Origin: Frankia sp. AgB32
GTDB taxonomy: Bacteria; Actinomycetota; Actinomycetes; Frankiales; Frankiaceae
Length of the DNA: 38,213 bases
Assembly: GCF_023243045.1 (NCBI RefSeq)
Contig: NZ_JALKFX010000087.1
Span: 1-38,213 of the forward strand
Reading direction: 5' to 3'
Under the pieces are notes generated by a model. It saw only the letters and a list, made by a program, of their open reading frames with translations, ran no database searches and was not told the origin of the DNA. Numbering within the stretch: the stretch's first letter is position 1; the number at the start of each line of letters is the position of its first letter. Below, in pieces: positions 6,651 to 31,946 of this stretch. A program made the position numbers and the translations under genes.

Positions 6651-7167
6651 CCCGGCCCGCCACCCGGCCCGTCCGGGGGACCATCACCTCCGGTGGCCCC
6701 GCCTGGACGGGCCGGGCCCGGCGGGTCCACCAGCACCCCCGCGAGCCGCTCCAGCTCGGCCATCGGCTCCTCCGTCAGCCCGGTGTGCACCGGCGAGGTC
6801 TGCATGACAGTGCTGCGTGGCGCCGTCAGCCAGCGGAAACGCTCCCCCGGGCTGAGCCGGCCGGCCGGGCCGGCCGCCCGCCCCCCCCCGCGCCCCCCCG
6901 CGCACCCCCCCCCCCGGGGGCGCGCGGGCGGGCCGGGCGGGCCGCCGGCCCGCCGCGGCAGACCGCGGCGAACCCGGCGAGATGCGCGACGACCTCCGAC
7001 ACGTCGAGGTGCGGATCGAGCGCGGCGAGGCGGCTCTCGTCGACCCGGCAGCGCAGGTCGAGAAACCGGGAACGCTGGCAGTACAACATCACCCCGACGT
7101 TGACGAACTCGCCGCGTTCGACCCTGGGCACCAGCCGGATCACCGCGTACTCGAACAGCTCACGCAT
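6647..7167 (-). pseudogene. DUF3037 family protein, reading frame broken at poly-C/G tracts
   Basis: The N-terminal part (MRELFEYAVIRLVPRVERGEFVNVG, written here as 7167 downward) is a typical DUF3037 start. Its ATG overlaps the end of the HipA-like gene by 8 bp, so the two are translationally coupled. After about 70 codons the frame enters C9, C7 and C11 runs (6881-6915). On the far side the family's C-terminal sequence resumes in another frame (LSPGERFRWLTAPRS, then SPVHTGLTEEPMAELERL) and ends with TAA at 6647-6649. The whole span is 521 bp, not divisible by three. Either the homopolymers contain a sequencing or assembly indel or the gene is genuinely frameshifted. DUF3037 proteins are commonly encoded next to HipA-like kinases in actinobacteria; their function is unknown. 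Confidence 0.75.
6881..6920. repeat. Homopolymer-rich tract (C9, C7, C11-G5)
   Basis: Runs of nine C (6881-6889), seven C (6893-6899) and eleven C followed by five G (6905-6920) occur within 40 bp. They lie inside the DUF3037 gene exactly where its frame is lost. The surrounding predicted peptide is Gly/Ala/Arg low complexity and unlike the family, so this is an expansion, a slippage hotspot or a consensus error. Confidence 0.8.
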
Positions 7168-8071
7168 CGCGGTTCCCCTGGGCCGGCGCGCCGGAGATGC
7201 GCAGCCAGTCCCCGGCCCGCAGCCAGTCCGGGCGTGCCGACCCCGCCCTGGCGCCACCGACGTGATCCGGTCCGCGCCGGCCGTCGGCCGCCCGCCCCGT
7301 GCCGGCGGCCGCTGCCTCGTCGAGCGCGGCGAGAACGCCGCCGCGCCAGCCTTCGCGGTCGGCGATCCGCGCGCCCAGCCAGTCGACGTAGCCGGATCTG
7401 GGCACCTCCAGCCAGTCCTCGGGAACGCGGCCGACGACGTCGGCGAGCAGCCCCGCATCGATCCGCCGCGCGAACGCGGCGTCGACCGCGACGAACGCGG
7501 CCCGGTCCGCCGCCGCGGCGCCCAGCAGGACATGTTCGGCGACGCCCGGCAACGCCCTGGCGACCGCCGCACCGGCACTCGGCCAGTCATGATGCGGATA
7601 GAGCGCGGCGCCGTGGTCGATCAGCCACAGCTGTCCACCCCACACCAGCAGGTTCGGGTTACGCCACGACCGGTCAACGTTCAGGGTCAGGGCGTCGAGC
7701 CAGAGCACCTGCGCGGCGACGGGCGCCGAGACCTCGACGGCCAGCGGGTCGTAGGTGATCGAGCCGGGCAGGTAGTCCATCCCGAGGTTCGGTCCGGCAC
7801 TGGCCCGCAGCAGGTCCTGGACCTCCTGGTCGGGCTCGGTGCGGCCGAGTTCGGGATCGACATCGACGACGACGAGCTCGGGCACCGCGAGCCCCAGCTC
7901 CCGCGCGAGCTCCCCGACGATCACCTCGGCGACCAACGCCTTCGCCCCCTGCCCGGCGCCGCGGAACTTGACCACCCAGGTACCGAGGTCGTCGCCGTCC
8001 ATCAACCCGGGCAGGCTGCCGCCCTCCCGCAGCGGCGTCGCATACCGCACCGCCGTGACATGTCGCAACAT
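7160..8071 (-). CDS. HipA-like (phosphatidylinositol-kinase-fold) protein kinase
   Basis: About 303 residues from the ATG at 8071, the start that matches the family (MLRHVTAVRYATPLREGGSLPG). Visible kinase features are Lys35 in WVVKF (ATP-binding), Asp133 with Asn138/Asn140 in LNVDRSWRNPN (catalytic loop) and Asp152 in LIDHGA (metal-binding). This is the short actinobacterial HipA-like family, which lacks the N-subdomain-1 and HipB antitoxin partner of E. coli HipA. A GTG at 8113 would add 14 residues but has no clear ribosome site. It overlaps the DUF3037 gene by 8 bp and lies 62 bp after the cyclase-like gene, suggesting a four-gene operon. Substrate unknown: classical HipA phosphorylates glutamyl-tRNA synthetase, but that cannot be assumed here. 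Confidence 0.8.
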   Translation of the reverse strand: MLRHVTAVRYATPLREGGSLPGLMDGDDLGTWVVKFRGAGQGAKALVAEVIVGELARELGLAVPELVVVDVDPELGRTEPDQEVQDLLRASAGPNLGMDYLPGSITYDPLAVEVSAPVAAQVLWLDALTLNVDRSWRNPNLLVWGGQLWLIDHGAALYPHHDWPSAGAAVARALPGVAEHVLLGAAAADRAAFVAVDAAFARRIDAGLLADVVGRVPEDWLEVPRSGYVDWLGARIADREGWRGGVLAALDEAAAAGTGRAADGRRGPDHVGGARAGSARPDWLRAGDWLRISGAPAQGNRDA

Positions 8072-20209: not shown

Positions 20210-21007
20210 TCAGGCTGACTCCGGGGAGCGGCGCGGCGACGGCGCCAGACCATGCGGCAGACCGTGCTCGGCGAGCGGGCCCAGCCGCAGGCCGGCGTCG
20301 TCGCAGCGGGCGGCGAGCTCGGGCAGGGCGCCGAGCGCACTGTGCCACGCGCCGGGCGCGGAGGTGCAGTCGCAGTCGTGCAGCAGCACCGTGGCCCCGC
20401 CCCGCAGGTCGGGGGCCAGGGTCGCCAGGACGCTGCGCGGCGTCGCCTCCGCCGTCCAGTCCCGGCCCCAGGCCGACCACAGGACCGGGGTCAGCTCCAG
20501 CCCCCGCGCCGCGACCAGCACGCCGGCGGACAGCACGCCGTGCGGCGGGCGCAGGAAGCGGGGGACCTGGCCGGTGCACTGCGCGACCAGGTCACGGGTG
20601 CGGGCCAGCTGGTCGTAGGTGGACCGGGGGCCGCGCAGCAGCATCGGCCGGTGGTCCCAGCCGTGCACGGCGAGCTCGTGGCCGGCGGCCACCATCTCGC
20701 GGGCCAGCTCCGGCGAGCGTTCCAGCAGGCTGCCGAGCACGAAGAAGGTGGCGTGCACCTCAAGCTCGGCCAGGACATCGAGGAACAGCGGCGTCGAGGC
20801 GGGATCAGGCCCGTCGTCGAAGGTGAGCGCGACATGGTCCGCGATACCGATGCCGGCCAGGCCGGGCGCCAGCCGCACCCGCAGTCGGCGCAGGGTGGCC
20901 AGGGACGGCAGGCCGTGGACGAGACCGGCCGTCGCCCCCAACGTCACCGCCGCGCCCGCGACGCGACGGCCCGCGACGAACCGGTGTGTCTCGACAGACC
21001 GGGCCAT
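20210..21007 (-). CDS. Polysaccharide deacetylase (NodB domain, CE4 family)
   Basis: 265 residues. An uncleaved N-terminal hydrophobic stretch (about 16-34) may tether it to the membrane. The NodB domain (about 55-240) has motif 1 TFDDGPD (Asp64 base, Asp65 metal), motif 2 HGWDHR (His115 and His119 metal ligands), motif 3 RPPHG (153-157, His replacing the usual Tyr) and motif 5 LLHDCD with the catalytic His. Predicted to remove N- or O-acetyl groups from a cell-wall polymer. It is divergent from the TerD fusion gene across 226 bp that contain three imperfect tandem repeats, so the two may share regulation. Confidence 0.9.
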   Translation of the reverse strand: MARSVETHRFVAGRRVAGAAVTLGATAGLVHGLPSLATLRRLRVRLAPGLAGIGIADHVALTFDDGPDPASTPLFLDVLAELEVHATFFVLGSLLERSPELAREMVAAGHELAVHGWDHRPMLLRGPRSTYDQLARTRDLVAQCTGQVPRFLRPPHGVLSAGVLVAARGLELTPVLWSAWGRDWTAEATPRSVLATLAPDLRGGATVLLHDCDCTSAPGAWHSALGALPELAARCDDAGLRLGPLAEHGLPHGLAPSPRRSPESA

Positions 21008-21233: not shown

Positions 21234-23087
21234 ATGACCCTGGCACCAGCCCTGCGGAAGGGCGCCAACACGCCTGTTCCCACCGGCGTGCTGCGGGTCG
21301 TGGTCGGCTGGACCCCGGGGCGGACGGTGGACGTCTGCGCCGTGCTCCTCACGGAGCTGGACCGGGTCCGCTCGGACGACGACTTCGTGTTCTACAATGC
21401 GCCGACGCACCCCTCGGGCGCCGTGTCGCTCGCCGCCTCCGCGCCGGGCTCGGCGGGCGTGGTCGCGACGCTGCCCCGGGTGCCGCCGGAGGTCGCCCGC
21501 ATCATCGTCGCCGGCTCCCTGGAGGACGGGGCCTTCCCGCTGCTGGCCGACCTGACCGTCACCGTGACCGACGGCGCCGGCCAGGCGGTCGCCCGCTTCG
21601 TGCCGGAACCCGACGAGCCGGTCACGGCGCTGGTGTTCGGCGAGGTGTACCGCCGCGGCGGCGGCTGGCGGTTCCGCGCCGTCGGTCAGGGCTGGGAGAG
21701 CGGCCTGGCCGGCCTCGCCCGTGGTTTCGGCATCCACATCCAGGACACCGACGACGCCGAACGACGTGACGACGCCACACCAGGCAGGCCGGCCGCGCGC
21801 CGTGAGGAGGCCGAGCCTGCGGGCGACCCGCCTGACACGCGGGTGCTGCCCGAGGTCGAACCGGACGAGGCCCGCCCGGCCACCCGGCCGACCCGGGACG
21901 CACGCGACGACCCGGCCGCGGACGACGAGCGCACCCTCGACGAAGCGACCGCGCGCCCGTGGATCCGGCCGGACTGGTACGGCGATCCGGTGCGACCGGA
22001 CCACATGCGCTGGTGGGATGGCCGCAGGTGGCAGGGCGGCCCGGTGCCGATGCACGTCGAGTCGGACGCGACCTGCGGGCGGTGCGGCGCCGAGAAGCGG
22101 TGGCGGTTGTTCGGCGGGCCGCCGGTCTGCGAGGCCTGCACCGAGGAGGTCCGTGCGTTCCTGCGGGACTGGCGGGACCGGCTCGGCACGGCGCTGGCCG
22201 CGGGCGACGCCGACCCGAACGACGCCAACCCGAACGGCGGCGAACCGAACGAGGCCGGGCCAGGTGGCTTCGAGGTGCGTGCCATCGACCTGGAGCCGTT
22301 CTGGGTCGAGCTGCGCTACCAGCGGATCCCGCAGTCGGTCGGCTGGGAGATCGTCCGCTCGGACGGGCTGGCGCACCTGGAACGGCTGACGGCGTTCGCC
22401 TTCTCCGACGGGGTGGTCGAGGCCGACGAGGTCGCGCGGATCGAGTCGGTCGCCGACCGGCTGCGCCTCGCCGGGCCCGAGGTGGACGCGCTGCGGGCCC
22501 GGCTCGCCCGCGGTCTGGAGCTCAGCCGGATCGGGGCCGGTGAGCTGCCCCGACTGCCGGAGGACGGCCTGCACCTCGAACTCGACGAGATCCTGCACCT
22601 TGATGTCCCGGCGACGTTGGTGCGACCGGCGGCGGACGGGCCGCGCCAGACGCCGGGTCGCCTGATCGGCACCAACCGCAAGCTGCGCTTCCTCGGCGAG
22701 ACCGGACGCGGCACCGAACTCGGCCTGCCGAAGATCGTCGAGGTGGAGGTCCGGGGCGGCGCCGTCGAGATCGCCGCGACGACGGCCCGCGGCTCCGGCG
22801 ACTACCTGGTCGAGGACCCGGAGTACGTCGCCGCGGTGCTGGTCGGCATCCTGCGGGTGGCCCGCCGGCAGGTGATCGCGCCGGGTAGCCGGGCGAGCCG
22901 GGCGATCCCGCAGGCGGTGAAGGCCGAGGTGTGGCGGCGCGACCGCGGCGTGTGCGTGGAGTGCGGCGGCGGCGAGCACCTCGAGTTCGACCACGTGATC
23001 CCGTTCAGCCGGGGCGGGGCGTCCAGCGTGAACAACCTGCAGTTGCTGTGTCGAGGGTGCAACCGCGCGAAGGGCGCACGGATCTGA
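21234..23087 (+). CDS. TerD - zinc ribbon - TerB-like - PH-like - HNH endonuclease fusion
   Basis: 617 residues with at least five modules. Residues 1-170 are a TerD domain (VLLTELDRVRSDDDFVFYN and RIIVAGSLEDG mark the Ca2+-binding fold). A charged, disordered linker spans 171-240. A short Trp-rich DUF2510-like stretch (247-267) precedes a zinc ribbon, Cys281/284 with Cys299/302. Residues 375-430 (LTAFAFSDGVVEADEVARIE) look like a TerB helical bundle, and 445-540 like a PH-type domain (LIGTNRKLRFLGE). The C-terminus (556-613) is an HNH nuclease: Cys574/Cys577, EFDHVIPFSRGG (His587), Asn601, Cys606/Cys609. Ter proteins are predicted to sense stress at the membrane; fusions to nucleases suggest a DNA- or RNA-cleaving output. 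It starts a gene set with the PLD (25 bp downstream) and SGNH genes. The ATG has GGAAAGG upstream. TerB-like and PH-like calls are my pattern readings. Confidence 0.8.
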   Translation: MTLAPALRKGANTPVPTGVLRVVVGWTPGRTVDVCAVLLTELDRVRSDDDFVFYNAPTHPSGAVSLAASAPGSAGVVATLPRVPPEVARIIVAGSLEDGAFPLLADLTVTVTDGAGQAVARFVPEPDEPVTALVFGEVYRRGGGWRFRAVGQGWESGLAGLARGFGIHIQDTDDAERRDDATPGRPAARREEAEPAGDPPDTRVLPEVEPDEARPATRPTRDARDDPAADDERTLDEATARPWIRPDWYGDPVRPDHMRWWDGRRWQGGPVPMHVESDATCGRCGAEKRWRLFGGPPVCEACTEEVRAFLRDWRDRLGTALAAGDADPNDANPNGGEPNEAGPGGFEVRAIDLEPFWVELRYQRIPQSVGWEIVRSDGLAHLERLTAFAFSDGVVEADEVARIESVADRLRLAGPEVDALRARLARGLELSRIGAGELPRLPEDGLHLELDEILHLDVPATLVRPAADGPRQTPGRLIGTNRKLRFLGETGRGTELGLPKIVEVEVRGGAVEIAATTARGSGDYLVEDPEYVAAVLVGILRVARRQVIAPGSRASRAIPQAVKAEVWRRDRGVCVECGGGEHLEFDHVIPFSRGGASSVNNLQLLCRGCNRAKGARI

Positions 23088-23112
23088 CGCGCGAGAGAGG
23101 GATCGGGGTTCG

Positions 23113-24780
23113 ATGACAGGCACGGTCGACGAGGCGCCGGACGCGCCGCCGCTCGCGGCACCGCCAGCCGAGGACGGCCTGCTGCGCGCCTGGTTTCTGA
23201 CCGCCGAGGAACGCGGTAACCCGGACACCGAGCTGGACCGCCGGCACCCGGACGACCGCTCGTGGACGACCGGCAACCTCGTGGTCGCGCTCATCCACGG
23301 CCGGGAGTACTTCAGCCGGTTGCTGACGACGGTCGAGAAGCTCGACCGGGGCGATCTGCTGCTGTTCACCGACTGGCGCGGGGATCTCGACCAGCGCCTC
23401 GACGGCGCCGGCTCGGAGGTCGGCGAGGTGCTGGGCCGCGCGGCGCGGCGCGGGGTCGTGGTGCGCGGGCTGGTCTGGCGCTCGCATCTGGAGCTGCTGT
23501 CGTTCAGCTCGAAGCCCAACCGGCTGCTCGCGGAGCGGCTGACCGAGTCGGGTGCGCAGGTGGTGCTCGACCACCGGGTCCGTCGCAGCGGCAGCCATCA
23601 CCAGAAGCTGGTGGTGGCGCGGCCGGCCGGCGACCCGTCGGCGGGCGTCGCCTTCGCCGGCGGCATCGATCTCTGCTACAACCGGCGCGACGACGCCGCC
23701 CACGCGGGCGATCCGCAGGGTCAGCCGATCGCCGCCGAGTACGGCGACGCCCCGCCCTGGCATGACATCCAGGTCGAGGTGCGGGGCCCGGCCGTCGGCG
23801 ACCTGGAGCACACGTTCCGCGAGCGGTGGGACGATCCGGCCAGCCTGGACACCCCGAATCCGCTGCGGCGGCTGTTCTACCGGATCCGGCCGGTGGCCAC
23901 GCGCACGGACCCGCTGCCCGCGGTGCGGGCCGATCCGCCGCCGGTCGGCTCGCACAACGTGCAGATCCTGCGGACCTATCCGCGCCGACTGCGGCCGCCG
24001 TACCCGTTCGCCCCGGTCGGGGAGCGGTCGATCGCCCGGGCGTACCAGAAGGTGCTGCGCCGCGCCCGCCGGCTGATCTACCTGGAGGACCAGTACATGT
24101 GGTCCACGGAGGTCGCCCGGCTGTTCGCCGACGCACTGCGCCGCGCCCCGGACCTGCATCTGATCATCGTGGTGCCGCGGTACCCGACCCAGGGTGGACC
24201 GCTGTCGCTGCCCCCGAACCTGGTGGGCCGGGAGCAGGCCCTGGAGGTCTGCCGGGCCGCCGGCGGCGACCGGGTGGCCGTCTACGACGTGGAGAACCAC
24301 GCCGGCACCCCCGTCTACGTGCACGCGAAGGCGGTGACGGTGGACGACGTGTGGGCGTCGGTCGGGTCGGACAACCTCAACCGCCGGTCGTGGACGCACG
24401 ACAGCGAGCTGGCGGTCGCCACGATCGACGACGCGCTGGACCCGCGCGAGCCGCGAGACCTGGGCGGCCTCGGCGACGGCGCCCGGGTGTTCGCCCGGGA
24501 CCTGCGGCTGCGGCTGTGGCGCGAGCACCTGGACTGGGACGGTCCGGATGACGACCTGCTCGATCCGGCGGCCGGTTTCGCCGCGTTCCGCCGGCGGGCC
24601 GAGGATCTCGCCGCCTGGCATGCCGGCGGCCGGGTCGGCGACCGGCCACCCGGCCGGATAGTGCCACACACCCCGACCCGACTCGGCCGTCTGCGCCGCG
24701 CGTGGGCCGCGCCTCTTTACCATGCGATCTACGATCCCGACGGACGGCCACGCCGCATGCGTTCCGCCGGCCAGTGGTGA
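23113..24780 (+). CDS. Phospholipase D superfamily protein (two HKD motifs)
   Basis: 555 residues, bilobed PLD fold. First HKD motif: His163-Gln-Lys165 in SGSHHQKLVVAR, followed by GGIDLCYNRRDD. Second: His404-Ala-Lys406 in VYVHAKAVTVDD, followed by VGSDNLNRRSW with the usual Gly-Ser and Asn. Both active-site halves are intact, so phosphodiester hydrolysis or transphosphatidylation is expected. There is no signal peptide (the N-terminus is acidic and Pro/Ala-rich), implying a cytoplasmic or peripheral membrane location. The substrate could be phospholipid or nucleic acid, as both occur in the superfamily. The 25-bp gap to the TerD/HNH gene, with GAGAGAGGG as ribosome site, indicates co-transcription. 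Confidence 0.85.
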   Translation: MTGTVDEAPDAPPLAAPPAEDGLLRAWFLTAEERGNPDTELDRRHPDDRSWTTGNLVVALIHGREYFSRLLTTVEKLDRGDLLLFTDWRGDLDQRLDGAGSEVGEVLGRAARRGVVVRGLVWRSHLELLSFSSKPNRLLAERLTESGAQVVLDHRVRRSGSHHQKLVVARPAGDPSAGVAFAGGIDLCYNRRDDAAHAGDPQGQPIAAEYGDAPPWHDIQVEVRGPAVGDLEHTFRERWDDPASLDTPNPLRRLFYRIRPVATRTDPLPAVRADPPPVGSHNVQILRTYPRRLRPPYPFAPVGERSIARAYQKVLRRARRLIYLEDQYMWSTEVARLFADALRRAPDLHLIIVVPRYPTQGGPLSLPPNLVGREQALEVCRAAGGDRVAVYDVENHAGTPVYVHAKAVTVDDVWASVGSDNLNRRSWTHDSELAVATIDDALDPREPRDLGGLGDGARVFARDLRLRLWREHLDWDGPDDDLLDPAAGFAAFRRRAEDLAAWHAGGRVGDRPPGRIVPHTPTRLGRLRRAWAAPLYHAIYDPDGRPRRMRSAGQW

Positions 24781-24813
24781 CTGTTCGCCGCAGAGAGAGG
24801 AAAAGAGAAAAAA

Positions 24814-25641
24814 GTGCGGATCGGACGATTGGGGCCGATCGGCTGGATGTTCGTGGCCGCGATCGCGCTGGTGCTGGGCGCCCTCGTGATCGACCATGCC
24901 TCGCCCGGCCCGCGCACGCGGGTCGCGCTGTGGGGGGACTCGCTGGCGTGGGAATCGGAGGCGTCGTTCGCTCAGACGGTGACGGCCGAGCATCGCGACT
25001 CCGCCCCCGCCAAGGTGCTCGTGCGGACCTGGGGCGGCACAGCGCCGTGTGACTGGCTCACCGACATCCGTGACCAGTCCCGGCGCTGGCATCCCACCGT
25101 GGCCGCGCTGGCGTTCTCCGGCAACCAGGGCAGCGACTGCATGCGCGGCCGAGATCTGCTCACCGCCTACCGGCAGGACGTGACGGCCGCAGTCGAGCGG
25201 CTCACCGCCGCGGGAACGACGGTGCTGCTGGTCGAGGCACCGCCGCGCAGTGACCAGTCGGTCGACGCCGCCGGGCTGACGCCGCTGGACCGGTTGTGGC
25301 AGGAGATCGCGGCGGCGCACCCGCACACTCTGGTCGCGCCCGCCGGCCGGGTGGTCAGCGCCGATGGCCGGTTCGCGCCGACGCTGCCGTGCGACCAGGG
25401 CGAGACGTGCGGTCCCGGCGGGATGGTGACTATCCGCAGCCCCGACGGGACGCACTTCTGCCCGTACATCGAGCCGCCGATGACGCCGTGCCCGGTGGCG
25501 TCGCCCGGCGCCGCCCGCTACGGCGCGGCGATCGCCCGCGAGGCGCTGGCCGCCGCGGACGGCGCCGCGGCGGACACGACACCCGGTGACGAGCGCCGGA
25601 TCGCCAACGCGGGCGCGGGCGCCGCGCTCCCGGGTGGTTAG
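24814..25641 (+). CDS. Membrane-anchored SGNH hydrolase
   Basis: 275 residues from a GTG preceded by a purine-rich ribosome site. One N-terminal membrane helix (residues 9-27) exports the catalytic domain. SGNH blocks: GDS with Ser43 (ALWGDSLAWES), Gly74 in RTWGGTAPCDW, Asn104 in AFSGNQGSD, and Asp211-x-x-His214 (SPDGTHFC). Several cysteines (79, 109, 193, 199, 216, 226) suggest extracytoplasmic disulphides. Such domains often occur attached to acyltransferase-3 proteins and act on O-acyl groups of surface polymers. It follows the PLD gene by 33 bp on the same strand and is likely the third gene of that operon. Its stop overlaps the stop of the convergent small gene at 25638. Confidence 0.75.
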   Translation: MRIGRLGPIGWMFVAAIALVLGALVIDHASPGPRTRVALWGDSLAWESEASFAQTVTAEHRDSAPAKVLVRTWGGTAPCDWLTDIRDQSRRWHPTVAALAFSGNQGSDCMRGRDLLTAYRQDVTAAVERLTAAGTTVLLVEAPPRSDQSVDAAGLTPLDRLWQEIAAAHPHTLVAPAGRVVSADGRFAPTLPCDQGETCGPGGMVTIRSPDGTHFCPYIEPPMTPCPVASPGAARYGAAIAREALAAADGAAADTTPGDERRIANAGAGAALPGG

Positions 25642-25955
25642 GCGACGGGCCGGTGGGCGTTGGCGATGCGCCGGCCGGTGACGGGCCGGCGGTGGATGCC
25701 GAGCTCGTCGCGCCAGGAGAGACAGGTCCGGTCCGGCATGCCGATCATCGAGAGCTGGTCGGCGAGGTCGGCGGCGAACGCCTCCACGTCCGCGGGCCGG
25801 CGGACGAGCACGGCCAGGCCGTTCTCGTCGACGGCGGCGATGCCGGCACGGTCACTCAGGCCCGCGCCCAACTGGTCGGCGAGCTCCTCCGGCCCGGTGA
25901 GCTGGCGGGGCAGTTCCGGCCAGGCGACGTCGACCAGGAGCGTGTCCGCCGGCAT
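25638..25955 (-). CDS. Small protein of unknown function (105 residues)
   Basis: I do not recognise a family. The gene has a textbook ribosome site (AAGGAGG, 5 nt from the ATG at 25955) and strong GC3 bias, so I consider it real. The protein is acidic in the first 75 residues (MPADTLLVDVAWPELPR, then a helix-rich Ala/Asp/Leu stretch) and ends with a basic segment rich in Arg and His (RRPVTGRRIANAHRP). One Cys (in RTCLSWRDE). No signal or membrane helix. It lies between the SGNH gene (overlapping, convergent) and the ABC exporter gene (same strand, 94 bp upstream of the small gene), so it may be translated from the exporter transcript. Confidence 0.65.
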   Translation of the reverse strand: MPADTLLVDVAWPELPRQLTGPEELADQLGAGLSDRAGIAAVDENGLAVLVRRPADVEAFAADLADQLSMIGMPDRTCLSWRDELGIHRRPVTGRRIANAHRPVA

Positions 25956-30775: not shown

Positions 30776-30848
30776 GCGCCGTTAGCTCAATTGGCAGAGC
30801 AGCGGACTCTTAATCCGCGGGTTCGGGGTTCAAGTCCCTGACGGCGCA
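30776..30848 (+). tRNA. tRNA-Lys (anticodon CTT)
   Basis: A complete 73-nt tRNA: acceptor GCGCCGT pairs with ACGGCGC, D arm TAGCTCAATTGGCAGAGCA, anticodon stem GCGGA/TCCGC around CTCTTAA, and T arm GGGTTCAAGTCCC. Discriminator A. No CCA is encoded. The 3' portion from the anticodon loop onward is the left attachment sequence of the integrated element to the right, and the integration left the tRNA intact. Confidence 0.97.
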
Positions 30849-30852
30849 CCCG
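30807..30852 (+). repeat. Left attachment repeat (attL), 46 bp
   Basis: A perfect copy of 37382-37427. It starts at nucleotide 32 of tRNA-Lys (anticodon loop) and ends 4 bp past the tRNA 3' end. Use of a tRNA 3' half as the identity segment is standard for tyrosine-integrase elements. Confidence 0.95.
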
Positions 30853-30936
30853 CTCCCATCAGCCCATACGGCACGGTCCTGCCGTAGCGCTGATCCTTCT
30901 TGGCAGCCACGCTGGCAGCCAGAGGGCACACAGCAG

Positions 30937-31390
30937 TTATTCGGCCTCTGGCTCCTCCTCCGTTTCTTCCTCTGACTTCGGCTGGGGCTTGTCACTGTTC
31001 GTGGTGTCCCACAGCGTCGCTGCCATCCGGTCCGCGGCGTCGGTGGACAGCTCCGGCGCAACGTGGCTGTAGGTGCCGAGCGTCAGGCTGATCTGTGAGT
31101 GCCCCATGATCTCCATGACGACCCGCGGGTGGACCTTCTGCGCGAGCAGAAGGCTTGCCATCGTGTGACGCGCGTCGTGCAACCGGGCAGCCCGAACGCC
31201 CGCAGCGTCGAGGAGCGCCTTCCAGGCCCGGTGATCGGCACTGGGGTCGATCGGGTGGCCAGTCGGCTGCGTGAACACCAAATCGTGCTCGTTACGCCAT
31301 GCGCTGCCGGCCGCTTCCGCTTCCTGGCGTTGCGTCGCACGGTGCGCGGGCGAGCCGCGCAGAGCCGGCAGGCCAAGCGGACGGGCCGGT
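30937..31390 (-). pseudogene. Tyrosine-type site-specific integrase, C-terminal remnant
   Basis: Only the C-terminal half of the catalytic domain remains: ATQRQEAEAAGSAWRNEHDLVF is the recognisable start region, then HDARHTMAS (H-x-x-R box), MGHSQISLT (His) and nucleophile Tyr in GTYSHVAPELS. The protein ends in an acidic Glu-rich tail (stop at 30937). The N-terminal arm-binding domain and first catalytic Arg region are missing, and the frame runs instead into unrelated sequence derived from a TetR gene. It cannot be active. It lies 84 bp from attL in the expected orientation. The junction near 31390 is approximate. Confidence 0.85.

Positions 31391-31946
<556 letters not shown>

What the first reader, a model, noticed from the sequence alone, without database searches (positions are those of the whole stretch)
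21234..25641. TerD/HNH multi-domain fusion in an apparent operon with a phospholipase D protein and a membrane SGNH hydrolase
One protein combines a TerD stress domain, zinc ribbon, TerB-like bundle, PH-like module and an intact HNH nuclease (Cys574/577, His587, Cys606/609). It is followed after 25 bp by a PLD with both HKD motifs and after 33 bp by an exported SGNH hydrolase. Ter-domain proteins have been predicted to form membrane-linked stress or antiviral complexes. Here sensing (TerD/TerB), DNA or RNA cleavage (HNH) and membrane or envelope remodelling (PLD, SGNH) sit in one transcript. The domain calls for TerD, HNH, PLD and SGNH rest on visible motifs; TerB-like, PH-like and the defence or stress role are inference.
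Basis: partly seen in the sequence, partly recalled or inferred. Interest (0 to 1): 0.75.

Follow-up and report, generated by a model that had tools for sequence, protein, structure and literature searches.

The report
Stand-alone TerD–HNH nuclease, not three-gene operon
A Frankia protein joins a bacterial stress-sensing domain to an intact DNA-cutting domain; its two downstream neighbours look like unrelated residents, but distant relatives of the protein hint that it may be a cutting arm of the still mysterious Ter (tellurium-resistance) stress system.

Summary
Relatives occur in Frankiaceae, Nocardia, Gordonia, Dactylosporangium, Virgisporangium, Deinococcus and a predicted provirus.

The three-gene 'system' is not supported. 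PLD and SGNH sit beside a deacetylase gene in six relatives that lack TerD-HNH at that site (one has a broken PLD), and none of 25 other TerD-HNH or core loci has PLD or SGNH in its fetched flanks (one has almost no flank).

Relatives give a better clue. In Deinococcus radiophilus the gene sits inside a Ter operon (the D. radiodurans copy stands alone). Seven of seven non-Frankiaceae actinomycete genomes searched with the fusion carry Ter PRTase_2, against 57 of 358 in a class sample; they are not independent, and most PRTase_2 genomes lack the fusion. HNH is the most constrained domain (dN/dS 0.05-0.08; TerD about 0.4).

Best reading: a stand-alone, horizontally mobile, signal-gated nuclease working with the Ter pathway. 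Cutting, gating and any defence role are inferred. Novelty: new variant of a known kind; interest 0.5.

The parts
21234..23087 (+). TerD-linker-DUF2510-zinc ribbon-TerB-like-PH-HNH protein, 617 aa
21249..21728 (+). TerD domain (residues 6-165)
   Evidence: Pfam 6.9e-30; model residues 16-169 match 3ibz TerD, Z 21.7, rmsd 2.0 over 154
21975..22043 (+). DUF2510 module (residues 248-270)
   Evidence: Pfam 1e-4, slightly under cut-off; 11 of 12 aligned sequences match at E<=1, best 2.3e-11
22062..22145 (+). zinc ribbon (C281, C284, C299, C302)
   Evidence: positions; in 11 of 12 aligned sequences
22284..22541 (+). helical, TerB-like bundle (residues 351-436)
   Evidence: AF2 models; TerB assignment weak here, better in the D. 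radiodurans homologue
22551..22883 (+). PH-fold module (residues 440-550)
   Evidence: AF2 models and fold match, 5yqr Z 12.8
22887..23084 (+). HNH nuclease module (residues 552-617; H587, N601, N610; C574/577/606/609)
   Evidence: Pfam 3.2e-12; invariant residues; dN/dS 0.079 vs L041 and 0.047 vs L039
23113..24780 (+). phospholipase-D-like protein, motif 1 atypical (HxKx4R), motif 2 HKD; neighbour, not part of the nuclease unit
24814..25641 (+). DUF459/SGNH-like hydrolase with an N-terminal hydrophobic stretch; partner of the PLD gene also where TerD-HNH is absent
20210..21007 (-). polysaccharide deacetylase, other side of the site where TerD-HNH sits
   Evidence: Pfam 1.6e-31; syntenic

Best explanation
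A stand-alone, horizontally mobile effector of the Ter stress pathway. The N-terminal TerD domain (with the TerB-like and PH modules as further ligand, protein or membrane contacts) senses a Ter-pathway signal or metal/stress state and releases the C-terminal HNH domain to cut nucleic acid, probably DNA. It came to lie between a polysaccharide deacetylase gene and a PLD-SGNH pair in the ancestor of one Frankia clade, so the three genes are neighbours, not a dedicated system. Shown here: the anatomy, intact catalytic and zinc residues, an architecture conserved across two phyla, separability from PLD/SGNH, and location inside a Ter operon in one Deinococcus. Inferred: nuclease activity, gating by TerD, the identity of the signal, any stress or antiviral role, and that the gene was gained in this clade rather than lost from the site in the others.
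For: Architecture in 12 aligned sequences, one of them compact. HNH catalytic and Cys4 residues invariant. HNH is the most constrained domain in two pairwise comparisons (dN/dS 0.079, 0.047), TerD much less (0.38, 0.42). TerD and PH folds supported by models. PLD-SGNH block without TerD-HNH at the site in six relatives, four of which carry TerD-HNH elsewhere; no PLD/SGNH at 25 other loci. D. radiophilus pRadio2: TerD-HNH followed by TerD, VWA, TerD, TerD, DUF475/TerC and divergent from ATP-grasp, PRTase, HAD, AIM24, StiP. Ter PRTase_2 in 7 of 7 non-Frankiaceae actinomycete genomes with the fusion that were searched against 57 of 358 non-Frankiaceae genomes of the class sample, and in 17 of the 18 Frankiaceae genomes with the core. 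The window genome has relatives of the PRTase, StiP, HAD, HpcH, TerD and DUF475 proteins on contig C225. Mobility: differing neighbourhoods, a tree placing G021 (genus g5) among g7 genomes, a copy in a predicted provirus.
Against: No activity data. The cis link to a Ter operon rests on one of two Deinococcus records; the D. radiodurans copy stands alone. Most PRTase_2 genomes lack the fusion: 39 of the 57 outside Frankiaceae are of one family and genus (f18, g24) with no core match, and within Frankiaceae PRTase_2 is near-universal (34 of 35), so it does not track TerD-HNH there. The 7 of 7 genomes are not independent (three share a genus) and not drawn at random; no ATP-grasp or AIM24 relative was found on the parts of C225 searched. 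TerD is not the least constrained domain: DUF2510/ribbon and linker are looser, and the helical bundle too in one of two comparisons. TerB assignment is weak. The full model has pTM 0.44 and pLDDT under 50 at 547-554 and 591-596, at and inside the HNH part, so no domain arrangement is shown. Neighbours of stand-alone copies look largely metabolic. The Deinococcus TerD domains lack the actinobacterial DDDFVFYN motif.
Confidence: 0.5

Rival explanations
1. One reading: TerD-HNH, PLD and SGNH hydrolase are one transcript and one membrane-linked stress or antiviral system.
For: 25 and 33 bp gaps, same strand; all 8 clade-A loci keep the order; in several of them the PLD frame is open up to or across the TerD-HNH stop, so a tight first junction is possible there too.
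Against: The surrounding block is equally syntenic in the clade; the block exists without TerD-HNH at the site in six relatives; 25 other TerD-HNH or core loci lack PLD/SGNH in the fetched flanks; PLD-SGNH gap is 237-329 bp in six of eight clade-A loci.
Confidence: 0.08
2. A DNA-processing or repair protein for general DNA-damage or metal stress, without a defence role.
For: Presence in two Deinococcus species, a genus known for radiation resistance; neighbours of stand-alone copies largely metabolic; no strong PADLOC match of the protein itself.
Against: Patchy distribution, differing neighbourhoods, a transfer and a provirus copy look like accessory or conflict genes.
Confidence: 0.25
3. A restriction-like or homing-like HNH nuclease that uses the TerD-to-PH part only as a scaffold and cuts constitutively or by DNA recognition.
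For: HNH part matches McrA-, IscB- and Cas9-type HNH sequences; similar HNH tails occur in other proteins.
Against: No methyltransferase, modification-reader or RuvC domain among the Pfam matches; TerD is present in all 12 aligned sequences.
Confidence: 0.13

Closest known systems
Ter stress-response/anti-phage systems (Anantharaman, Iyer, Aravind 2012: not held, not read; seen through passages in PMC7824862, PMC3710099, PMC7159879, PMC5822837)
   Same: TerD domain, TerB-like module, Ter genes in cis (D. radiophilus) or in trans (Frankia).
   Different: TerD and TerB-like modules are fused with zinc ribbon and PH to an HNH nuclease in one polypeptide; stand-alone at the actinomycete loci examined.
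HNH endonucleases of the McrA/IscB/Cas9 type (Pfam PF01844)
   Same: Cys4 site and DH...N...CN motif.
   Different: No RuvC or methyl-DNA-reader domain among the Pfam matches; IscB model far below its cut-off.
Streptomyces TerD structure 3ibz and Klebsiella TerD 2kxt
   Same: Fold (Z 21.7 and 16.2) and sequence over about 145 residues.
   Different: Those chains are short TerD proteins (191 and 200 residues) without the other modules.
Eukaryotic-type phospholipase D (6ohr, 6kz8)
   Same: Gene 2 matches in sequence (2.2e-17); HKD motif 2 intact.
   Different: Motif 1 lacks the Asp; no PX, PH or C2 domain among the Pfam matches.

Membership tests
Ter system component (TerD family) | TerD domain | tested here: met
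   Pfam 6.9e-30; 3ibz Z 21.7
Ter system component (TerD family) | gene sits with Ter partners (TerC/DUF475, biosynthetic genes) | tested here: inconclusive
   Not in this window; relatives of several Ter genes on contig C225; in cis in D. radiophilus, not in D. radiodurans
Ter system component (TerD family) | metal or ligand binding by TerD | not testable with these tools
   acidic DDDFVFYN motif present; no binding data
TerB | profile match over cut-off | tested here: inconclusive
   0.17 here; 1.4e-4, 22.6 vs 24.4 bits, in the D. radiodurans homologue; hhalign probability 12% and 5%
PH-like fold | seven strands plus C-terminal helix | tested here: met
   AF2 model, Z 12.8; lipid or peptide binding not tested
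HNH endonuclease | catalytic His, Asn and Cys4 zinc site | tested here: met
   H587, N601, N610, C574/577/606/609 invariant in 12
HNH endonuclease | nucleic-acid cleavage | not testable with these tools
   no assay
IscB RNA-guided nuclease | whole-protein score over the curated cut-off | tested here: not met
   36.4 of 175 bits, HNH part only
HKD phospholipase D (gene 2) | two complete HxKxxxxD motifs | tested here: not met
   motif 1 HQKLVVAR, motif 2 HAKAVTVD
known PADLOC defence system | strong whole-protein match | tested here: not met
   best hit 2.7e-5, HNH part only

The most novel reading that the evidence does not exclude
The Ter system is a signalling immune or stress pathway with a nuclease arm: its ATP-grasp/PRTase/HAD enzymes make a nucleotide-like signal that is read by the TerD domain of this fusion, which then unleashes the HNH domain on DNA, in trans from a stand-alone, transfer- and provirus-borne effector gene.
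Probability: 0.25. Interest if true: 0.8.

Novelty: new variant of a known kind. Interest (0 to 1): 0.5.

Why it matters
What Ter operons do is a long-standing question (the mechanism 'remains to be elucidated' in PMC5822837, passage). A conserved, Ter-linked protein with a likely catalytic readout (HNH) would give a direct test: add candidate Ter metabolites or metals and look for cutting. Removing PLD and SGNH from the model prevents a false lead.

Tried and rejected
Three-gene system: rejected on synteny and separability. An argument from widening gaps was cut back on checking: it holds for PLD-SGNH (33 and 27 bp in two loci, 237-329 bp in six) but not for TerD-HNH to PLD, where possible PLD starts run from inside or next to the TerD-HNH stop to over 100 bp downstream (the 100-388 bp came from my gene caller). 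The gene caller is home-made; it missed the TerD-HNH gene itself in L051 and L067, so absence of PLD/SGNH was re-tested by tblastn without it (three control loci gave the expected hits).

Defence island around stand-alone copies: 98 of 118 neighbour genes were scanned (20 dropped: 9 short ones and the 11 of loci L057 and L198). The most frequent Pfam family reached 3 of 98; only 25 of 141 families are shown. PADLOC matched 54 families at 1e-8, 25 shown, each in 1-2 members. I traced 10 of the 98: one kinase-like protein in L196 accounts for the PD-T4-6, mad6 and C3a189 rows, and one L068 protein matches PDC-M43B. The mad3, mad8, Cas12f/Cas12u4 and Csx1 rows were not traced and no control set was run, so 'no defence island' is only indicative.

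Phage or plasmid origin: among 197 phage records with a match none covers 80% of the core; of 23 plasmid records with a match two do, both Deinococcus. The viral scan gave one full-core locus, a predicted provirus, and one HNH-only locus. PF15632 (ATPgrasp_Ter) rang in 13 of 14 control genomes (12 over cut-off), so it was not used as evidence of Ter by itself. PRTase_2 was over its cut-off in 1 of 14 controls.

Fold searches: TerB was not among the hits shown; PH and TerD chains fill those lists, so this says nothing against it. The phylum survey gave, beyond genomes already known, only HNH-tail matches (6 of 396 genomes).

Literature: 'TerD-HNH', 'TerD family protein' and 'TerD domain' were searched (21 papers hold at least one, 20 listed; 'TerD-HNH' occurs 0 times in each listed). 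The listings showed no description of the fusion. Passages on TerD and HNH in PMC12363816 treat them as separate genes. The key 2012 paper is not held, so priority is open. Passages were seen of PMC3710099, PMC7159879, PMC7824862, PMC5822837 and PMC12363816; of all others only search listings.
Full report
What is there. The window belongs to a Frankia-type genome (G000, 6.68 Mb in 274 contigs; the nearest named hits are Frankia). Gene 1 has TerD at 6-165, a linker of low model confidence (pLDDT under 50 at 170-241), DUF2510 at 248-270, a Cys4 ribbon at 281-302, a helical bundle at about 351-436, a PH-fold module at 440-550 and HNH at 552-617. The TerB call remains weak in this protein but is better in the D. 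radiodurans homologue (Pfam 1.4e-4, just under cut-off). The full-length model has pTM 0.44, so it shows domains, not their arrangement. Gene 2 matches eukaryotic-type PLD chains (2.2e-17), yet its first HKD motif has Arg in place of Asp in all 14 homologous loci examined. Gene 3 is DUF459/SGNH-like.

Is it constrained. In the 12 sequences aligned, C574, C577, D586, H587, N601, C606, C609 and N610 are invariant. Against ortholog L041, dN/dS is 0.08 for HNH, 0.19 for PH, 0.38 for TerD, 0.46 for DUF2510 plus ribbon, 0.49 for the helical bundle and 0.52 for the linker, with 0.19 and 0.16 for the neighbouring PLD and SGNH genes; against the more distant L039 it is 0.05 for HNH, 0.22 for PH, 0.37 for the bundle, 0.42 for TerD and 0.51 for DUF2510 plus ribbon. 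A conserved cutting part behind faster-changing parts fits an effector, but these are two simple pairwise estimates.

Is it a system. The evidence says no. Eight clade-A loci (window plus seven) share deacetylase(-) | TerD-HNH, PLD, SGNH | 105-aa gene(-) and form one clade (support 100/100). The deacetylase|PLD-SGNH block exists without TerD-HNH at the site in G008, G012, G016, G017 and G021, and in G007 with a broken PLD; in G012 the SGNH match is in two pieces of different frame. G008, G016, G017 and G021 carry TerD-HNH elsewhere. None of 25 TerD-HNH or core loci outside the clade has a PLD or SGNH match at 1e-3 in its fetched flanks, while three control loci do. The 25 are 13 Frankiaceae loci (L056 with almost no flank, L057 truncated), four named actinomycetes, five stretches of other class genomes (one, L198, without TerD), the provirus and two Deinococcus. 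The PLD-SGNH gap is 33 and 27 bp in the window and L041, 237-329 bp in the other six clade-A loci; the TerD-HNH to PLD gap cannot be set in several of them. Co-transcription in this strain is therefore possible but is no sign of a conserved unit. Reading the pattern as a gain in clade A rather than repeated loss is parsimony over these genomes, not a formal test.

Distribution. In the class sample the TerB-PH-HNH core reaches 1e-20 in 18 of 35 Frankiaceae and 5 of 358 other genomes. Of those five, G064, G135 and G361 carry the full TerD fusion, G333 has the core without TerD in the same frame, and G192 has only the HNH tail. Named full-length members occur in Nocardia takedensis, Gordonia amarae, Virgisporangium ochraceum (no DUF2510 or ribbon) and Dactylosporangium aurantiacum. 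The tree places G021 (genus g5) among g7 genomes, suggesting transfer. One copy lies in a predicted provirus (L239) about 3.7 kb from an integrase gene, with a tail-fibre-type gene further in; provirus borders are predictions.

The Ter link. On D. radiophilus plasmid pRadio2 a TerD-...-HNH gene is followed by TerD, VWA, TerD, TerD and DUF475/TerC genes, and diverges from ATP-grasp, PRTase, HAD, AIM24 and StiP genes. This resembles the Ter components listed in PMC7824862 (passage: PRTases and HAD enzymes, TerB/TerD ligand-binding proteins, TerC, vWA). The D. radiodurans copy has no such neighbours. PRTase_2 (PF15609) is over its cut-off in 34 of 35 Frankiaceae, in 91 of 393 class genomes, hence 57 of 358 outside Frankiaceae, and in 7 of 7 whole non-Frankiaceae actinomycete genomes with the fusion (three of them are of one genus and are counted among the 57). 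Against this: 39 of the 57 belong to one family and genus (f18, g24) with no core match, so the module does not need the fusion. The window genome's relatives of PRTase, StiP, HAD, HpcH, TerD and DUF475 lie on contig C225; ATP-grasp and AIM24 relatives were not found on the stretches searched. Any cooperation in Frankia would be in trans. G009 has the fusion but no PRTase_2 over the cut-off (draft of about 1200 contigs).

Mechanism. The most likely reading is a Ter-pathway effector: TerD senses, HNH cuts, with PH and the helical bundle giving further contacts. Steps shown: domains, folds, residues, one operon context. Steps inferred: cutting, gating, ligand, biological role. Defence is possible (mobility, provirus copy) but not shown; DNA-damage or metal stress is the main rival.

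Novelty. The annotated Deinococcus records call both copies 'TerD family protein'. No description of the fusion was seen in the held-library listings or in the passages opened, but the central 2012 paper could not be read. Its title, as given in the reference list of PMC5822837, includes DNA processing, so it may already mention such fusions. Hence 'new variant of a known kind'.

Noticed in passing
30776-31692: tRNA-Lys (30776-30850, +) is followed at once by a short integrase-type gene on the other strand (PF00589, 1.7e-13, matching only the C-terminal half of the profile): possibly the scar of an element integrated at the tRNA.
   Followed up: partly
6826-8050: DUF3037 gene and HipA_2-like kinase gene side by side on the minus strand.
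   Followed up: no
25638-25955: 105-aa gene without a Pfam match at 0.001, syntenic in all 8 clade-A loci and also next to SGNH in L159 and L160.
   Followed up: no
L165:894-1283: PLD gene left only in pieces in genome G007 while its deacetylase, ALDH and SGNH neighbours remain.
   Followed up: no
L239:1514-4194: Two adjacent genes (430 and 463 aa) between the provirus integrase and TerD-HNH; the first without a Pfam or PHROG match, the second with only a weak MIP-T3_C hit.
   Followed up: no
L185:1498-2505 (G333): Ribbon-TerB-like-PH-HNH protein without a TerD domain in the same open frame, suggesting that the C-terminal part is a separable module.
   Followed up: partly
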